From Apostichopus japonicus (taxonomy: Eukaryota > Echinodermata > Holothuroidea > Aspidochirotida > Stichopodidae): a stretch of 64,000 nt of DNA. The stretch covers positions 25,762,960 through 25,826,959 of the forward strand of contig NC_092563.1 of assembly GCF_037975245.1 (NCBI RefSeq), given 5' to 3'. The notes below the pieces were generated by a model. It worked only from the letters and a program-made list of their open reading frames with translations. It was not told the DNA's origin and did no database searches. A program made the translations under genes and the position numbers. This document shows, piece after piece, positions 11,185 to 34,500 of this stretch (position 1 is its first letter; each line of letters starts with the position of its first letter).

Positions 11185-11912
11185 AATATTTAAATGGTTA
11201 CATCTCTATGTTCCGACGTCTCTATGTTCCGACGTCTCTATGTTCCGACGTCTCTATGTTCCGACGTCTCTATGTTCCGACGTCTCTATGTTCCGACGTC
11301 TCTATGTTCCGACGTCTCTATGTTCCGACGTCTCTATGTTCCGACAAATTGTTTGGACTCAAAAAATTTTTTGACCAAAATTTTTTCGGACCCATTTTTT
11401 TGTGACCCAATTTTTTTCGGACCCCATTCTTTTTGGACCCAATTTTTTTTGGACCTAATTTTTGTGGACCCAATTTGTGGGGACCCAAATTTTTTTGAGA
11501 CTTAATATTTTGGGACCCAATTTTTTGGGACCTAATTAGGAGTCAGGGAAAAAATTGGTCAGAAATCATGTTGGTCCAAAAGTTGGGTCCCAAAAAATTT
11601 GGGTCCGAAAAATTTTGGTCCAAAATAATTGGTTCCAAAAAAATTGGGTCCGAAAAAAAATTGGGTCACGAATGGGATCCGAATAAAATTTGGTCAAAAA
11701 AAATTAGAGTCCAAACAGTTTGTCGGAACATAGAGACGTCGGAACATAGAGACGTCGGAACATAGAGACGTCGGAACATAGAGACGTCGGAACATAGAGA
11801 CGTCGGAACATAGAGACGTCGGAACATAGAGACGTCGGAACATAGAGACGTCGGAACATAGAGACGTCGGAACATAGAGACGTCGGAACATAGGGATGTC
11901 ACCATTTAAATA
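11185..11912. mobile_element. ~730-bp foldback with 16-bp minisatellite arms
   Basis: The left arm has nine tandem copies of TCTCTATGTTCCGACG (11203-11345). The right arm has eleven copies in inverted orientation (about 11721-11896). Inside them, degenerate 'GGACCCAATTTTTT' motifs (left, 11346-11540) are mirrored by inverted 'AAAAAATTGGGTCC' motifs (right, 11545-11720). Outside, ATTTAAATGGT is mirrored by ACCATTTAAAT. The whole is one near-complete palindrome with almost no unique loop. Open frames across it are by-products of the repeat. Confidence 0.9.
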
Positions 11913-24735: not shown

Positions 24736-26236
24736 ACTGCCTGGTCTGGAACAGTCTTACTCTCCTTCCATACATACAGAATTGTAAGAGCTGGTTGTTG
24801 TGTATTTTCACTGTAACTGGCTAGGATTATCCTGATTTGATACAATATACATGATGCCAGAATGCCAGTAGACACAATTTCTAGAAGTTCATAGCCACTT
24901 TCCAAAAGCATTCCACAGTATTGAAGATGCATGCTTCATACAGTAAGAATAGGCTATATTGTTGACCTCATCACTGCTATTGAGGTCAAGTACACACTGA
25001 CAATGTGGTCAAGGACACACTGACCAGTACTAGGGCTATTGTTCATGTTGCACTTGGTCCGAACAGAATTTACTTGCAGTATTTACCAACTACTGTACTA
25101 ACCCTAGCTGAAACCTAGAGCAATATGATCGTTTTGAAACAATTGAAATAAAATTTCCATCACACCAGAACTTTACAAGAGCTGTAAGAGAAAACTTTAG
25201 AAACAAAGGATCCTTACAGTAAATAGCAAAGTCTTATTTCATTTTTTGTGAGAGAGAAGGGGTAATGTTACATCTTATCATATTGAGAGAATGGTTGAGG
25301 TAGTTGTAGTTTAAGCTAACTTATTCCCTTACTTCACCTCCACCCCTCCCCCACCCCCACCCTCACACACCTCTTAACTAAGGACATCACAATGCATCCC
25401 TCCCATTGAAGCCAATGCAATGTACTCATAAGGGTTGAGGCATAAATGATGATATTTAAGGTTCATTAACTGTTTACTGAGGTACTGTAGCTCCTTAGTG
25501 TAGATATAAGACAAATGCAGAATGAATTGCAAACATTACAGGAAGTATGTAATGACTAGTGGAAATTACTAAGTATGTAATCATTACAACCAGTACCAGT
25601 GGTACTTTCAATCTGAGTATTAACCATTATAATAAATGTATGTTAATTAACTAAGTGACCTTTACAGAGAGTTACTGTATGTAATAGCCACAACACTGTA
25701 GAATTATATACAAAAAACAAAACAAATAAACACTACAGGAATACATAATCAAAATACAGATCTATGTAAATAGGAAGCAGCATGTAAGAAACATATGCAT
25801 ATTACAGGAAGTATTTAACAGCCAGGCAACCATTTGAGGAGACCTGTACGTAGTATTTATAACAGAATGAATATTACAGAAGTGGGAGAGGATAATTTGT
25901 TATTGGAGGTATGTTATGAAGGAATGGCCAGTAGGAGGTATGTTATATAAACTATTTGACAAGATAACAACTGAGGTTGCACAGCTATATTACAGAACCC
26001 CTTACATGAGGTATATGTAAATCCAAAGTAAAAATTATCAGAGGTACATATTAACGTTAAAATATATGAAATGAAGTACCAAATGTTTGCCAAAAAACAC
26101 TTAATAAGGAAACACATAAATGCAGCTTTTGAAAATTTCGGGAATCCCACAAGATTTATGTAAATATTTATAAAGGAGGTATTTGGTAATATAGTATCTA
26201 GTTAAGGAGGTAATCAGGAACATACTATTGTGAAGA
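24736..26236. other. Intergenic or very distal 3' flank, no gene seen
   Basis: No coding signal. It contains a let-7-like 17-mer at 25296-25312 and many short GGAGGTATGT/TGTAGTAACC motifs that foreshadow the 140-bp satellite downstream. Confidence 0.4.
25296..25312 (-). promoter_or_regulatory. Possible distal let-7 site with 3' pairing
   Basis: The plus strand reads TGAGGTAGTTGTAGTTT, which is let-7-like: the full 8-nt seed, then TTGTA-GTTT, resembling the let-7 3' half with a short gap. The minus strand would therefore be a target with seed and supplementary pairing. It matters only if the TRIM71 transcript extends about 4 kb past its stop; it may be chance. Confidence 0.25.
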
Positions 26237-26990
26237 TACCACAAATGGAGGTGTGCAATATGTAGCAACTAGTAAAGTAGGTATTTAATACCATACATGT
26301 AGCTACCAGTTTAACACTTAAGGAGGTATGTGATACATGTAGTATCTTAGTAAAGAGGTATGTATTTCTATATAGTTACCTCTAAAAGAGGTGTGCAATA
26401 TGTAGCAACTAGTAAAGTAGTTATTTAATACCATACATGTAGCTACCAGTTTAACACTTAAGGAGGTATGTGATACATGTAGTATCTTAGTAAAGAGGTA
26501 TGTATTTCTATATAGTTACCTCTAAAAGAGGTGTGCAATATGTAGCAACTAGTAAAGTAGTTATTTAATACCATACATGTAGCTACCAGTTTAACACTTA
26601 AGGAGGTATGTGATACATGTAGTATCTTAGTAAAGAGGTATGTATTTCTATATAGTTACCTCTAAAAGAGGTGTGCAATATGTAGCAACTAGTAAAGTCG
26701 GTATTTAATACCATACATGTAGCTACCAGTTTAACACTTAAGGAGGTACGTGATACATGTAGTATCTTAGTAAATAGGTATGTATTTCTATATAGTTACC
26801 TCTAAAAGAGGTGTGCAATATGTAGCAACTAGTAAAGTAGGTATTTAATACCATACATGTAGCTACCAGTTTAACACTTAAGGAGGTACGTGATACATGT
26901 AGTATCTTAGTAAATAGGTATGTATTTCTATATAGTTACCTCTAAAAGAGGTGTGCAATATGTAGCAACGAGTGAAGTAGGTATGTAATA
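26237..26990. repeat. 140-bp satellite, about five copies
   Basis: TCTAAAAGAGGTGTGCAATA begins at 26381, 26521, 26661, 26801 and 26941, an exact 140-bp spacing. Copies are nearly identical, with small differences that mark neighbouring copies as recent duplicates. Degenerate relatives continue to about 27150. Confidence 0.95.
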
Positions 26991-28203
26991 CCATGTAGTA
27001 ACCAGTTTTACCACACGGAGGTATGTATTATCATGAACTAACCGGTAAAGGAAGTCTGCCTGTGTAGTAACCAGTAAAGAGAGGTATGTACTATCATGTA
27101 ATAACTGGTACAGAAAGTCTGCCTGTGTATTAACCAGTAAAGAAATACTTCTCTGTAACTGGTTCCAGAAATGTGCCCATGTTATAACTGACAATTTAAC
27201 TCCTGTTTGAAGTTGTTATGTAGATATCTAGTTTATCAACTTTATCAAGGTATGAACACTGAAAAAATTGTCATATTTCTTTAACCAAACAAAATACAGT
27301 AAAATCATGTACTTACAACATGCCCTCTTACAAATACAAGAAACTCATCTGGAAGGTTATAACCTTCTTTTGAAAACCATTACATTTTTTAAACTGCTTA
27401 AAATTCATTTACAGAAAGCTACCCAATTCTGTCTGTAAGATATTTGACAAACTACATATCATGCACTGTCTTGCCTCAATGGATAATTATGTAAGGTGTG
27501 ACAAAAAAATCCATAATCAGCCCAATAATTCAGTTGTTAATACTATCAAAACTATGTTCAAACAAAACAAAGGAGTGGAAAAATTTCCCTCATAAATAAA
27601 GTTGCCTACAGTAAAGCCAGTGTTTCCTTAATTTTGATCAAATGACCAAATTTTCTGTCTGAACTATTGGGGCTTATCATGCAGTTATCTTCCTACCCTC
27701 TGACCCGAAGAAAGTTTTCCCACATTTCTACATCTACTGACCATGATTGTATTGTTTACATATAATATATATAGTACCCACCCACAGGGATGTTTCCATA
27801 CGACTAATTACAAACGTATACTGCTCTCACAAAACAACTTTAAAAGGCTCTTCAAAAGTGCTTTACATAGCTCAAAGGGAGAATTTTAAAAGTTATATTA
27901 ACAGACAAATGCTTAGTCCATGCTAATCGCCAAGCAAAGATCAAAAACAAAAAGAAAGTAAGAAAAGAAACATCAACGACAAGAACAAGAACAAAGGGAT
28001 AATAATAATTAATAATAAATATACAGGATCGACTATATGGCACGATATACATTAATATTGAAATTGACCAAAAAATTGGGCAAACTTTTATCTTCACCTG
28101 AACAATTTGATAAGAATTTTTAATTTCCTTTACAATTTTTGCTTTAGAAATATGTGCAGCACATTTTGAACATAACGCTTTGAAAAAGTAGAAAAATAAT
28201 TTT
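26991..28203. other. Distal 3' flank of TRIM71, no gene seen
   Basis: AT-rich with no supported ORF; the minus-strand ORF at 27852-28220 is hydrophobic low-complexity sequence. It could be part of a long 3' UTR. Confidence 0.35.
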
Positions 28204-28210: not shown

Positions 28211-28526
28211 AAAAATGCAAAACAAAGAGTTAGGGAGATGACAATGTCCGCAACAAGACAGATCAAAACAACAAAACATTTAATTGTACACGTAAGAACA
28301 ATAATTTTGAAACAGAAGCCTAGAAGTAGGCATTTCCCATGTGGCATTTTAGAAGGGTTGAATGTCTCTTCTCTTCGAACAGTATAAATTGCAGTTAACA
28401 GCTGCTTGTTGAAATATCACACCCTAAAGCTTGTAGATAGGCAATTTAACTTCCTGAGAATGGACTTGCTTTGAGCAATGCAATATTTATTTTTTTCCTT
28501 TTGCTATTTTCATCATTTTAATTCTC

Positions 28527-28532
28527 TTTATT
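28527..28532 (-). terminator. Candidate poly(A) signal for TRIM71
   Basis: AATAAA on the minus strand, about 40 nt past the second let-7 site and ~760 nt past the stop. Other AATAAA hexamers occur nearby (about 28486 and 28726), so the end used is uncertain. Confidence 0.35.
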
Positions 28533-28572
28533 TAAATACTTTCATTTACATTAAATATTAGGTAACAGAAAA

Positions 28573-28580
28573 TGAGGTAG
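28573..28580 (-). promoter_or_regulatory. let-7 8-mer target site (distal of a pair)
   Basis: The plus strand TGAGGTAG makes the minus strand CTACCTCA, the full let-7 8-mer (seed match plus A opposite position 1). It lies about 707 nt past the TRIM71 stop codon. No strong 3' pairing is visible beyond the seed. Confidence 0.7.
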
Positions 28581-28594
28581 AAAGCTTCTTACAT

Positions 28595-28602
28595 TGAGGT
28601 AG
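28595..28602 (-). promoter_or_regulatory. let-7 8-mer target site (proximal of a pair)
   Basis: A second CTACCTCA on the minus strand, starting 22 nt from the first and leaving a 14-nt gap between seeds. Paired let-7 sites in the lin-41 3' UTR are known from nematodes, and lin-41/TRIM71 is a conserved let-7 target in vertebrates. The gene identity and pairing make this far better than a chance 8-mer. Confidence 0.72.
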
Positions 28603-29287
28603 ATAAGTATTGAGCAATTGCAACAGTTTTTAATACAAAAAAAAAAAAAAAAAAGCTTATGTACATTTCATCTGCTATTATTCATATTTAAATTTTGTTT
28701 TAACTTAGCTACAAAAAGACATGTTTATTTATTCTCCTTCACGGGAGAGTGACTTGAACGGCAGTTACAATACAATGACCCGTAATAAATGTCCTCTCAT
28801 AGAAACAAACAGCCTAATATTCGGCAAATCGTGATGTTGTGAATGAAAAAAAAAAAAAAAACACATTCAGAACATCAAAGGAATAAAACAAGAAAGAGCA
28901 ATATATACTTTTCTACAAAATACCTGAGCAAGCGATGTAAAGCATTAGATAATTATTTAAATGCTAACAATTTCATTTGGGATTTGATTAAAGGTTTTCT
29001 TTTAAAGCTGAAAACAGCTGTGAAGCCAACATTTACAGACTGAGCAAAAAACAAACAAAAAAAAACAGGGCAAGAGGCAGTTGGAACTTCCCAACTTCAG
29101 TGGCTAAAAATGTAGTGAGATTGAGGTTAAGTCTGTAATATGTATGTAATCTACTCAGCATAACATACATACATGTATGAGAGTCTACATGTATCAAACA
29201 CCAGGCACTATTTTGCCAATATCAAGCAATGAGGCATGTTACTTCCCAACAGAATGCATGACAAGCACTGTCGTTCTTTCCTCATTT

Positions 29288-31588
29288 TCAAAATGCTTGC
29301 ACTCTATTATTTCCAAAGTCTACGACGAGTATGAGACCATCGGGGGAAACACATATGCCAGAGGGACGATCGAGTTCCCCCAGACTCACACCGGGTCCCG
29401 AACCGAATGAGCACACAAAATTACCATTAGGCTGAAAGACCTGAATCCGATTATTTCTAGAGTCTGCCACGATGATATTACCCTCCTGGTCGATTGCCAC
29501 CCCCTGAGGCCTCAAGAATTGGCCGTTACTAGTCCCCTCCGAGCCAAGAAACTTGGCAGATTGGAAGTCAGAGTGGATAACCAAGAGGCGGTGATTATTG
29601 AAGTCTGTGACCACAAAGTAACCTTCGTTAGTGAAAGCTACACCTCTCGGAGAATCAAAGTGTTTCCACAGGGGACCATCAAAGCCATACTTATTCCAAA
29701 AGGACCCATCGGCATGAAACATTTGGATACGGTGGTTACGGGTATCGGAAACCAGGATCTTTCCTTCATTGCTTACAGCAATGTCCCAAGGGTAGTTAAA
29801 CTGGCCATTTTTACTTCCTTTCTCACCAAATTTGAAAAGGAATTGTCCATTAAATGTGAAAACCTGAATCCTATGATTATCTTTATCTGCTACAATAATG
29901 TTATTGTCTGGTGTTACTGAAACACCAGCGGGGCGGTCAAACTGGCCATTTCTAGACCCAGGGGAACCAAACTTATGGTGGAAAGTACCATCGGCTTTAA
30001 ACACCTGAATTCTGTTATTACTACGGTCGGCCAATATTACATACCCATCTTTGTTGGCGGCAATACCCCACGGGCGACACATCAACCCATCCCCATCTCC
30101 CTCACCACCAAATGTGAGCAGAACTGCACCAATAGTGGCATAGTTCCTTGGTCTTCCCACACTGACGAGAAATGGACTACCCTGAATGTGCTTTCCCCTG
30201 ATGGTCACTGAGAGTATGTGTCTCCCTTCTAAATGAGGTATGTAACTCACGGTATAGCTACCATTCTGTCTATCAGATACCTCGCCAAACTGTGTTTTAC
30301 CTTTCGGGTCTTGCAGCATCGCCTCGACGACATCCCCACCAGTAAAAGACGTTTCGTTGCAGTGGTTCTTGCCATGTACCAGTATCTGTGTTGTCTTGTC
30401 AATCAGGGCTCTCCTGAGACCGCCTCCTGTAGCATACGAATTGGATGCATGAGCACCTGTGCTGAGTAGTCCCATGGATGAAATTGCAGTCAGCAAGGCA
30501 TTATCTGGTGGTGTGAAAACTATCTCATCTGTTTCGTGAGGGTTGAAATAACTCTGAAGGTTCTTCAATACCTGCATCTGTTTCACTAACTTTTCTCTCA
30601 TTCTTAAGATTTCCATGTCTGCACCACTCTGCAAGACCCTCTCACCATCCTCCACATTTTCAACGAGGGTGGACAAAGCATTGGATATTTCGGTGACTTG
30701 TTGATTAAGCGACTGCACTTTGACCTGTCTAACGACTTCAATCTTTCTTAGCATTTCCCCTTCTCTTTGCTCTAAGGAACTAACGTGACGAGCAATTGTG
30801 GACCGCACTTCTGCAGTCACCGTTTGGCATCGAGCAGTGACTCTATCTCGCATTGCCTGCACCTTTGTTAGACTTGATTCTAGAGCCTTCTGTGTTTTAG
30901 AGACTTCCCTGAGTAGTTGCACAGACATTGCTTTGCTTTCTTGTACTGCATCTTGGAGATACACACAACTATGGCCTTGGTGCTCTGAGAGTGTGCAGTC
31001 ACGGCATATGGCCATATTACAGGTGTCGCAAAAAAGTCTAACAATTTCATTTGGATGAATATTACAATAGCATGTAAGGTGCTCTGGGAGATGAGGCGAA
31101 TAATACTGAAAGTTAGGGATTGGAGTTGCCTTACCACTGCTTCCACTTTCGTCAAATTCTGTGATAAGGTGATCTTTGGTAAGTTTAACTCGATGGTGCG
31201 CAGACACACAACTATCACACAGGGCCTCATTGCAATCTTTGCAGAGGTGAGTAGCTGAAAGTCCATCATCACAAGAAGTGCAAATTTGCACAGAATTGGT
31301 GGTTCCATTTTCAAGTTCATCATCATGGCCACTGACAACATCCAGGAGATTATTAATAAGCATGTTAGAAGGCAACCCATCTAATCCCATCCCTCCCAAA
31401 GCCGTCTCTTGGAAACAAACTGGACATTTCACACTTTCTTTATCATGAACCTTATCCTCAAGGCAAGGCTTGCAGAAACTGTGAAGACAGGGTAAAATAC
31501 GTGGTTCATTTAGTCGATCGGAACACAGTGGACACCATAGCTGAGAGTCGTTCAGCTCATCCGATCCTGCTGCTGAAGCCATGGGCAT
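29288..31588 (-). CDS. TRIM71: E3 ubiquitin ligase TRIM71 / LIN-41
   Basis: A 766-residue TRIM-NHL protein in one uninterrupted frame. Order: a C3HC4 RING at about 19-58 (CPLC, 'PCLHSFCKPC', CPVC); B-box 1 at about 102-142; B-box 2 at about 175-212 (CNIHPNE, HQGHSC); a coiled coil at about 215-335; a filamin/ABP280 domain at about 385-480; six NHL repeats from about 495 to the end ('RPWGIAANKDGYVILADRSN', 'FDSPRGVAFTNEGYFVVTDF'). The NHL set and filamin domain match LIN-41/TRIM71 much better than TRIM2/3. Family role: a cytoplasmic RNA-binding repressor and ubiquitin ligase controlling developmental timing and stem-cell proliferation, silenced by let-7. Start: ATG at 31586-31588, ten codons before the conserved DELNDSQLWCPLC. 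Vertebrate TRIM71 has several coding exons; this copy has none interrupted. It is a little shorter than the human protein (868), mainly in the RING loop and N-terminus. Confidence 0.95.
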   Translation of the reverse strand: MPMASAAGSDELNDSQLWCPLCSDRLNEPRILPCLHSFCKPCLEDKVHDKESVKCPVCFQETALGGMGLDGLPSNMLINNLLDVVSGHDDELENGTTNSVQICTSCDDGLSATHLCKDCNEALCDSCVSAHHRVKLTKDHLITEFDESGSSGKATPIPNFQYYSPHLPEHLTCYCNIHPNEIVRLFCDTCNMAICRDCTLSEHQGHSCVYLQDAVQESKAMSVQLLREVSKTQKALESSLTKVQAMRDRVTARCQTVTAEVRSTIARHVSSLEQREGEMLRKIEVVRQVKVQSLNQQVTEISNALSTLVENVEDGERVLQSGADMEILRMREKLVKQMQVLKNLQSYFNPHETDEIVFTPPDNALLTAISSMGLLSTGAHASNSYATGGGLRRALIDKTTQILVHGKNHCNETSFTGGDVVEAMLQDPKGKTQFGEVSDRQNGSYTVSYIPHLEGRHILSVTIRGKHIQGSPFLVSVGRPRNYATIGAVLLTFGGEGDGDGLMCRPWGIAANKDGYVILADRSNNRIQVFKADGTFHHKFGSPGSRNGQFDRPAGVSVTPDNNIIVADKDNHRIQVFTFNGQFLFKFGEKGSKNGQFNYPWDIAVSNEGKILVSDTRNHRIQMFHADGSFWNKYGFDGPLWKHFDSPRGVAFTNEGYFVVTDFNNHRLLVIHSDFQSAKFLGSEGTSNGQFLRPQGVAIDQEGNIIVADSRNNRIQVFQPNGNFVCSFGSGPGVSLGELDRPSGICVSPDGLILVVDFGNNRVQAF

Positions 31589-34500
31589 TGTCTATCCTTT
31601 GTAATGTTTATTCCTTAGCATGCAGGAAATAGGCAAGCTGGGATAATGTGCTGCAAATGCTACCAGGGGGAGAGTAGGCCAACCAGTTCTCTACATCGAA
31701 ATCAGCCTAGCTAGTTAGGGCTACAACTACAAGCCTAGCTTAAAACCAGGGAAATCCTAACTTAGGCTCCCGCAGACTATGAAGTATGTGTCTTGGTGTT
31801 GGTCTGTGAAGGGCAAGATTTACCAAAATCTTGATGCCATCGCTAATTTATGCCAAGCCGAGTGAACTTCTATCCACTATCAAGTATTTTAGGCCCAAGT
31901 TCAATTTTAAAGGAACCTGGTTAGGCTTTATTTACTGGGCGTCGTCGTTGATTAGTGTAGCCTATGCTTACACGATATCACTAGCTTGAGCACGTATTTG
32001 TACAATCCAAGTCACCGTGTAACGTTACGTATTTCCCTCTGTCGCAGTTTTGAAGTGCTGGATTGTCTTCATGGAGCCTCATACTCCCCTGGTAAATGGT
32101 TTAAGTTATCCACATCATCTCCATGATAAGGATTTAAATGGCTATTACGTAACATTCTTTGAACAGGAATTCCTGCTTCTCCATGCTACGTTCGTTGCAT
32201 TGTTCCATAACAACTCCCTGGGCATGGTTCGTCCATTGCGTTCTAATACATTTTCAACGTGACACTAGCAAAGCGCTGGGACCTCAGCAGTATAACGTAC
32301 ATGCAATACTAATAAGTTAGCTACTTTGGCTTACGTTAAATTTATGTTTAGGTCACTTTCATAATATTTCTCATTTTGATTGTGTTCATCAGTGTTTTCG
32401 TGAATACTTTTTTATGATAAACTGTTTTTGGTGTGGACAAAATTTCCAATATATTTGAAAGTCACAGTGATCATAGTGACCCTACATGACCTCGAAAAGT
32501 GTGTGCAATAACAGGACACAAGCTAGATAGACACATGATGATTGCTATCAAGTGACGTCACGAGGAGGTACAGTAAGCAGATCTACAGAAATTAATAAGC
32601 ACAAATACGCTTTGTACATTAAACGGGACTAAACATTTACAGATCAGGGCATGCAGGTCCTTCATAATTCACAAGTGTGTGTGAAGGGATAAAGAAAGAA
32701 ACCGCCACACACGTGATAACATGGTGCTGTATACGGGGGGGGGGGGGGGAGACCCATGCGGTTGTCAAGTGTTCAGTGTTGGGAAATTATCACAATTTTT
32801 TGTTAGTAACTTTCGCTGAAATTTTGATACCAAATGGTTAACATTTAACTCTTCGAGTTGAAATTTTGGTAGAAAGTCGTAATCTAAAGATACTAAGATG
32901 ATATGATATGCAGATCAGAGACTGCGACTTGTTTACGGCTGGCCGGGATACTTCGGGGGGGGGGGGCCTGGGGATGGATGGTGGGGAATGGTGTGGTGGA
33001 GGCCCCTCTGTCTACTGTGGCGTTATCCCGTGACGTTTTGGTTCTCGCTGGGTGGGTCAATACAACACAATATCAGTCATACGCGTTACCGTAATAAAAG
33101 GAGACGCATTCGGAGGCATTTCTTATGAGAGGTTCATTTACCTCAGAACAAATTTAAGATTTCTTCGGATGAGATGAAACAGAAAACTGACATAGAAAGA
33201 TACAACACAGGGAAATAATAAATGTGGAACTTTTTCAATTTCCCTGTAACTTATTGTGATGTCTTCTTTACACAGATACGGTATAGCTCCACGATATGTC
33301 TCTTTAAGGCCACCGTAGAAATCGCTAAGTTTTTTTTCTGATCGCTCGATCACTCTGACGTTACAATTGTAGAGTGGGCCTACCTAGGCCTTAATTCAGC
33401 CCCTTCCAAATGATGGAACGCGAAAGCGTCAGTCCCACTCGAGTGTACCTTCCATGGAAGACAAAGACAAGAGTTAAAGATAGAAAGTTATTTGAATGCA
33501 GACATTCGAGCCAAAGACAACCAAAAGCATAGTTGCCAAATTTGTTAGTCCTAAACAGTGTGAATTATATATAGGCTGATATTTATAGGCCTACTTCATT
33601 TTATTTGTTGCCTTTTGCTATTTTATTTGCTCACCTTTTCATGTTACTTTTCATCCACCGTTTTGTCTGTAAATGCATGAGTTATAGTCGCCTTGTTTAG
33701 AACTAAAGAGGAAAGTCCAAAATAGGCCTCATTACTCTTTATTAAATTACATAGAAATGATCCAAGCACCAGCAAATCCACCCATGCAGTTATAAGTTTG
33801 CTATAGTCAGGGCCATAAATATGATGGTATAATTCGCGGCAGTACGAGTATAAATATTATTTTAAAAGATTTCGATGATGATGATGATGTCGCTGATTTT
33901 TCTCACTGGTTTAGTTCTATCAATTGAACTATTTCATTTCATCGATAGGTTGACCAAAGTTCACCAAAATAGAAAGAATTTTATCCTGTAAAGGTCGGGA
34001 GTCAAACCCCATGCACGAAGCAAGGAAATATTTCCCTAACAACAACTCGAGCTGGGCTTTGAATTTTACTAAATAATTTCGCTAAATCGGTGGAATAATC
34101 CACGAAAGTGTCTCATAATACAAAAATTATGTTTTTTAGTTTCGGCACCGCGGGCAATTTTGGCAGTTTTCGTTAAGGTTATGTAGATTAAAATTGCGAT
34201 TGCAAAATTAGTTACAATTTGACTAGAGTTCCTTTATATAGAACTCTACATTTGACTAACAAACACTGCCACAAATATTGTCTATCATTGCAGCTGCATA
34301 TGTAGCTATAACACAGTATGCGAATTTAGGAGACACACGAAGTGACCGTGTCCCACCATACAGGTGTGGGATGTGACAGCCCCACCCCCATCCCACCCCC
34401 ACCATGCAGTGAAATTAGAAGCCGGTCTCAAGTCGGAACCGGAAAACAGTCAGCTCATAGTTTTACACCCATCGTTGTGAGAGGCATATAGCCATACAAG

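What the first reader, a model, noticed from the sequence alone, without database searches (positions are those of the whole stretch)
28573..28602. Paired let-7 8-mer sites in the 3' flank of a LIN-41/TRIM71 gene
Seen: two CTACCTCA 8-mers on the mRNA strand, 22 nt apart start to start, about 700 nt past the stop. Known: nematode lin-41 is repressed by let-7 through two nearby sites, and TRIM71 is a let-7 target in vertebrates. The spacing is within the range reported for cooperative miRNA action. Inference: the ancient timing switch is kept here with a tightly paired layout.
Basis: partly seen in the sequence, partly recalled or inferred. Interest (0 to 1): 0.82.

Follow-up and report, generated by a model that had tools for sequence, protein, structure and literature searches.

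The report
Paired let-7 sites behind TRIM71
In what looks like an echinoderm genome, the gene for the developmental-timing protein TRIM71 (LIN-41) is followed by two closely spaced, perfect seed matches to the microRNA let-7, so the known let-7 switch on this gene is probably present here too, although neither the messenger RNA's end nor conservation could be checked.

Summary
Two CTACCTCA 8-mers lie on the mRNA strand at 28602-28595 and 28580-28573, 686 and 708 nt past the stop of a TRIM71/LIN-41 gene, 22 nt start to start. The gene has the TRIM71 domain order, and its four best solved relatives are all TRIM71. The same genome encodes a let-7 with the matching seed, near a miR-125 sequence; a bindin match points to an echinoderm. 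Chance is unlikely: 1 of 100,000 simulated 830-nt flanks has two such 8-mers, and the exact layout occurs at four places in 671.6 Mb, one a tandem array. Most likely this is an ordinary let-7 target module. Unlike nematode lin-41, the sites are plain seed sites without 3' pairing beyond chance. Open: AATAAA signals lie both before (+555/+559) and after (+756, +797) the sites, so a short mRNA could lack them, and no related genome was held for a conservation test. New member of a known kind; modest interest. The most novel open reading is an alternative-polyadenylation escape from let-7.

The parts
29288..31588 (-). TRIM71/LIN-41 coding sequence in one uninterrupted frame, 766 codons from the first ATG (in-frame TAG two codons upstream of it)
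   Evidence: Translation, Pfam domains, PDB TRIM71 matches, whole-genome protein search, 5' context
28595..28602 (-). let-7 8-mer site 1, 686 nt past the stop
   Evidence: Exact match; position; predicted P(8 nt unpaired) 0.452, 93rd percentile of the 1000 nt after the stop
28573..28580 (-). let-7 8-mer site 2, 708 nt past the stop
   Evidence: Exact match; position; predicted P(8 nt unpaired) 0.123, 70th percentile
28724..28733 (-). Overlapping AATAAATAAA, candidate proximal poly(A) signals at +555 and +559, before the let-7 sites
   Evidence: Motif scan; use not tested
28527..28532 (-). AATAAA at +756, candidate distal poly(A) signal, after the let-7 sites
   Evidence: Motif scan; use not tested
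28486..28491 (-). AATAAA at +797, candidate distal poly(A) signal, after the let-7 sites
   Evidence: Motif scan; use not tested
28637..28654 (-). Run of 18 U on the mRNA strand between the proximal signals and site 1
   Evidence: Read directly; role not tested

Best explanation
This is a let-7 response module in the 3' untranslated region of an echinoderm TRIM71/LIN-41 mRNA. When let-7 rises in development, two Argonaute-let-7 complexes bind the adjacent 8-mer sites by their seeds, the 22-nt spacing lets them act together, and TRIM71 mRNA is repressed. Shown: gene identity, the two sites, a let-7 gene with the matching seed in the same genome, the spacing, the rarity of the pair. Inferred: that the mRNA ends beyond the sites (at the +756 or +797 signal), that let-7 and TRIM71 meet in the same cells, that repression happens and is cooperative.
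For: Two exact 8-mers at +686 and +708. TRIM71 identity. One match to TGAGGTAGTAGGTTNTATAGTT in 671.6 Mb, read as TGAGGTAGTAGGTTATATAGTT, with an Rfam let-7 match of 56.3 bits, above gathering 53.5, and a miR-125 sequence about 180 nt downstream that folds as a hairpin. Two 8-mers in 1 of 100,000 simulated flanks. Exact layout at four places genome-wide. AU-rich flanks (0.70 and 0.75) and above-median predicted accessibility at both sites. The flank matches only itself in the genome. In human cells a reporter with a 468-nt TRIM71 3' UTR fragment loses activity when hnRNP Q knockdown raises let-7, and deletion of its two let-7 complementary sequences removes the effect (passages of PMC11230530).
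Against: Two overlapping AATAAA signals (+555, +559) and an ATTAAA (+654) come before the sites. No 3' pairing beyond chance: 37% and 43% of 2000 shuffled upstream sequences pair as well. No conservation test was possible. No 7-mer or 8-mer miR-125 site in the 4.5 kb after the stop. miR-10/100 also has one 7-mer match in the 830 nt, so a lone seed match means little. Pairs of this 8-mer also occur in tandem arrays without evident function.
Confidence: 0.78

Rival explanations
1. The sites are real but conditional: polyadenylation at the +555/+559 signals yields a short mRNA without them, and only the long mRNA (+756/+797) answers to let-7, so 3' end choice sets let-7 sensitivity. (Compatible with the best explanation; the odds overlap.)
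For: Signals on both sides of the pair and an 18-U run between. In human, TRIM71 3' UTR versions of 468 and 6,015 nt were tested, with two and seven let-7 complementary sequences (PMC11230530 passages).
Against: No transcript data; AATAAA is a common word in AT-rich DNA (its expected number was not computed); in the human case both versions keep sites.
Confidence: 0.2
2. The pair lies outside the mRNA (all transcripts end near +580) and is a chance motif in downstream DNA.
For: The first AATAAA after the stop is at +555; single 8-mers are common.
Against: Two 8-mers in 1 of 100,000 simulations, four places genome-wide, and the gene is the best-known let-7 target.
Confidence: 0.12
3. The 3' UTR is several kb long and carries more let-7 sites (third 8-mer at 25303-25296, +3985, and many 6-mers at 25900-27150). 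(Compatible with the best explanation.)
For: Third 8-mer on the same strand; 16 TACCTC 6-mers on the minus against 5 on the plus strand in 25900-27150; human 3' UTR of 6,015 nt with seven sites (PMC11230530 passages).
Against: No AATAAA from +797 to +4500, although ATTAAA occurs. By the positions, 8 of the 16 6-mers are copies within one tandem array (26248-26994); in that stretch only one 7-mer match is found.
Confidence: 0.12

Closest known systems
C. elegans lin-41 3' UTR let-7 complementary sites
   Same: Same gene family, same microRNA, two nearby sites whose loss reproduces let-7 mutant phenotypes in the worm (PMC6435043 passages)
   Different: A 27-nt sequence between the nematode sites is required (PMC8615635 passage) and the sites are called imperfect (title of Vella et al. 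2004 in reference lists). Here: two perfect 8-mers, a 14-nt gap, no 3' pairing above chance
Human TRIM71 3' UTR
   Same: let-7 effect through two let-7 complementary sequences in a 468-nt fragment (PMC11230530 passages)
   Different: The human full-length 3' UTR is 6,015 nt with seven such sequences; here two 8-mers within 830 nt and a third at +3985 that may lie outside the mRNA
Paired let-7 sites at 13-35 nt (Saetrom et al.)
   Same: 22 nt start to start lies in that range, and in the 16-30 range of Hon and Zhang (passages of PMC2374997)
   Different: Those ranges come from reporters and expression data in other systems; no repression was measured here

Membership tests
TRIM71/LIN-41 | RING, two B-boxes, filamin domain and six NHL repeats in that order | tested here: met
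   Pfam: RING 20-59, B-box-type matches 104-141 and 175-210, filamin 380-474, six NHL stretches
TRIM71/LIN-41 | Closer to TRIM71 than to TRIM2/3, Thin or Brat | tested here: met
   Best four PDB sequences are TRIM71 (480-588 bits); then Thin 229, TRIM3 165, TRIM2 164, Brat 130
TRIM71/LIN-41 | No second copy in the genome | tested here: met
   1794.5 bits for itself; the next match, a gene on C14 found in pieces, has 175.4 bits at 26% identity in its best piece (59 of 439 candidates scored)
let-7 target site | Seed match to a let-7 encoded by the same genome | tested here: met
   Two 8-mers; let-7 gene
let-7 target site | Site lies in the mature mRNA | not testable with these tools
   No transcript data; AATAAA on both sides
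let-7 target site | Conservation in related species | not testable with these tools
   G000 has no relatives here (stated)
let-7 target site | let-7-dependent repression | not testable with these tools
   Needs a reporter experiment
C. elegans-type lin-41 site architecture | Sites with strong 3' pairing to let-7 (feature recalled) | tested here: not met
   Duplex energies -16.3 and -16.0 against shuffled means -15.7 and -15.9; 37% and 43% of shuffles as good
C. elegans-type lin-41 site architecture | 27-nt spacer between the sites (PMC8615635 passage) | tested here: not met
   14 nt between the two 8-mers, 22 nt start to start

The most novel reading that the evidence does not exclude
Alternative polyadenylation between +555/+559 and +756/+797 places a tightly paired let-7 module in or out of echinoderm TRIM71 mRNA in a stage-dependent way, so that 3' end choice decides when TRIM71 escapes let-7, for example between larva and juvenile.
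Probability: 0.15. Interest if true: 0.55.

Novelty: new member of a known kind. Interest (0 to 1): 0.36.

Why it matters
let-7 control of lin-41 is known from nematodes and vertebrates. An echinoderm case with two perfect adjacent sites would fill a deuterostome gap between them and would give a simple, testable switch in animals with a marked larva-to-adult change. It is an expected extension rather than a surprise: PMC7018135 already states that a lin-41 target site is maintained from nematodes to humans (passage).

Tried and rejected
Repeat origin of the flank: rejected, since 28400-28800 and 28800-29287 each match only themselves in the genome. 3' supplementary pairing, also at the third 8-mer (47% of shuffles as good): no better than shuffles. 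miR-125 co-targeting: no 7-mer or 8-mer site in 4.5 kb. Pumilio-type element TGTACATA at +623 (motif recalled): 608 of 5000 simulated flanks have such an element, so not significant. Other NHL-type genes as controls: three matches chosen from the 64; in 3017, 3007 and 3325 nt of DNA after the first in-frame stop none has a pair, and one has a single 8-mer at 2571 nt (those stops may lie in introns rather than at the gene's end, so the control is weak). The other two non-array places with the exact layout: C13 lies about 2.8 kb beyond a frame that I recognise, from memory, as a fatty-acid transport/acyl-CoA synthetase C-terminus; C17 lies in repeat-rich DNA near frames that look amidase-like, again from memory (no family search was run on these). 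Ten of the 21 other ORFs of at least 120 aa in the window were scanned and none gave a Pfam match at E 0.001. The whole window gave no Rfam match at gathering threshold. Literature: ten searches ran. Those for let-7 with lin-41 and sea urchin (5 papers, 4 listed), let-7 with lin-41 and echinoderm (2) and TRIM71 with echinoderm (8) listed no title on let-7 sites in an echinoderm lin-41; of these I opened passages of two (PMC1976426; PMC12066098), which say nothing on such sites. The others were seen as listings only.

Full report
Observation. The window holds three CTACCTCA 8-mers, all on the minus strand. Two of them, 28602-28595 and 28580-28573, lie 686 and 708 nt after the TGA stop of a minus-strand frame and 22 nt apart start to start.

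The gene. The frame 29288-31591 translates without an internal stop; an in-frame TAG stands just before ACA-ATG, so the protein starts at 31588 unless an upstream exon is used (sequence). Pfam finds a RING, two B-box-type fingers, a filamin repeat and six NHL repeats. The four best PDB sequences are all named TRIM71 (480-588 bits), well ahead of Thin (229), TRIM3 (165), TRIM2 (164) and Brat (130); the two best alignments are shown. In the 671.6-Mb genome the next match, a gene on C14 found in pieces, has at most 175 bits and 26% identity (59 of 439 candidates scored). I take it as TRIM71/LIN-41.

The microRNA. TGAGGTAGTAGGTTNTATAGTT occurs once in the genome, as TGAGGTAGTAGGTTATATAGTT, and Rfam recognises a let-7 precursor there above its gathering score (56.3 against 53.5 bits). 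With a looser threshold the opposite strand of the same hairpin also matches mir-3596, of the same clan, at 59.3 bits, below that family's gathering score of 96. A looser let-7 pattern gave three further matches that differ through the middle, and three matches to its reversed control; they were not pursued. A miR-125 sequence lies about 180 nt downstream and folds as a hairpin (-31.4 kcal/mol); Rfam's mir-10 family, which I recall covers miR-125, matches there only below its gathering score (22.2 against 47.5). No match to CCCGTAGA (miR-100, recalled) was found in the 3,022 bases of L001. A Pfam bindin match above cut-off, absent from 14 control genomes, points to an echinoderm. That bindin is a sea-urchin and sea-star sperm protein is recalled, and the species was not identified.

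Chance. In first-order Markov sequences made from the 830 nt after the stop, 479 of 100,000 have one 8-mer or more and 1 of 100,000 has two. In the whole genome the exact layout gives 21 matches, against 13 for the reversed control pattern; the 21 fall into four places: this one, C13, C17, and an array on C15 with 18 of the 21. By simple arithmetic, four places in 1.34 billion strand positions give about 3 in a million for any chosen 1-kb flank, but that fixes the gap after the fact. The fairer figure uses gaps of 1-30 nt: 297 matches against 172 for the reversed pattern, so the genome as a whole is not strongly enriched; 100 of the 297 are printed, in 25 clusters by my count, which scales roughly to 5 in 100,000 per 1-kb flank. 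The flank matches only itself in the genome.

Mechanism. Both sites are full 8-mers in AU-rich surroundings (0.70 and 0.75 AU in 30 nt each side), with predicted accessibility at the 93rd and 70th percentile of the 1000 nt after the stop. Pairing to the rest of let-7 is no better than in shuffles (37% and 43% as good), so recognition would be by the seed. The 22-nt spacing lies within the 13-35 range that PMC2374997 quotes from Saetrom et al. and within its own 16-30 range (passages). The most likely mechanism is joint repression of TRIM71 mRNA by two let-7 complexes. The repression itself is inferred.

Weak points. AATAAA occurs at +555 and +559, before the sites, and at +756 and +797, after them; ATTAAA occurs at +654 and +766 among other places. 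An mRNA cut after the first signals would lack both sites. The third 8-mer, at +3985, lies beyond a stretch without AATAAA. The TACCTC 6-mers at 25900-27150 number 16 on the minus and 5 on the plus strand, with one 7-mer match; by position 8 of the 16 lie in the tandem array 26248-26994.

Comparison. In C. elegans, lin-41 lacking the two let-7 sites reproduces let-7 mutant phenotypes (PMC6435043 passages), and a 27-nt sequence between the sites is required (PMC8615635 passage). In human cells a 468-nt TRIM71 3' UTR fragment answers, through its two let-7 complementary sequences, to a knockdown that raises let-7; the 6,015-nt version carries seven (PMC11230530 passages). PMC7018135 (passage) states that lin-41 keeps a let-7 site from nematodes to humans. 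let-7 is reported from echinoderms (PMC1388199 and PMC1976426 passages), although the sea-urchin list of PMC1388199's own survey names six families, miR-125 among them, without let-7. The present case works like these and is best filed as a new member of a known kind. It does not share the nematode site architecture as far as I could test it.

Noticed in passing
window 25900-27150 (140-bp tandem array at 26248-26994): let-7 6-mer matches are dense downstream of TRIM71: 16 TACCTC on the minus strand and 5 on the plus strand, 8 of the 16 inside the tandem array. Only one extends to a 7-mer, and the mRNA is not known to reach them.
   Followed up: partly
window 25296-25303: A third CTACCTCA on the same strand, 3985 nt past the TRIM71 stop; pairing to the rest of let-7 no better than shuffled.
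   Followed up: partly
G000:C15:2041498-2043009 and G000:C1:20743544-20744518 (outside the window): Tandem arrays whose units contain a full let-7 8-mer (18 exact-layout matches on C15, 36 printed pairs on C1). They could soak up let-7 if transcribed on that strand, or be plain minisatellites.
   Followed up: no
L007 1011-1040 (G000:C13:18864510-18864539): A second non-array pair of let-7 8-mers with the same 14-nt gap, about 2.8 kb beyond a frame that looks like a fatty-acid transport/acyl-CoA synthetase C-terminus (identified from memory).
   Followed up: partly
window 11203-11345 and 11722-11893: Two 16-bp tandem arrays with 100% matches whose units are reverse complements of each other, on either side of A/T-rich arrays at 11367-11715.
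   Followed up: no
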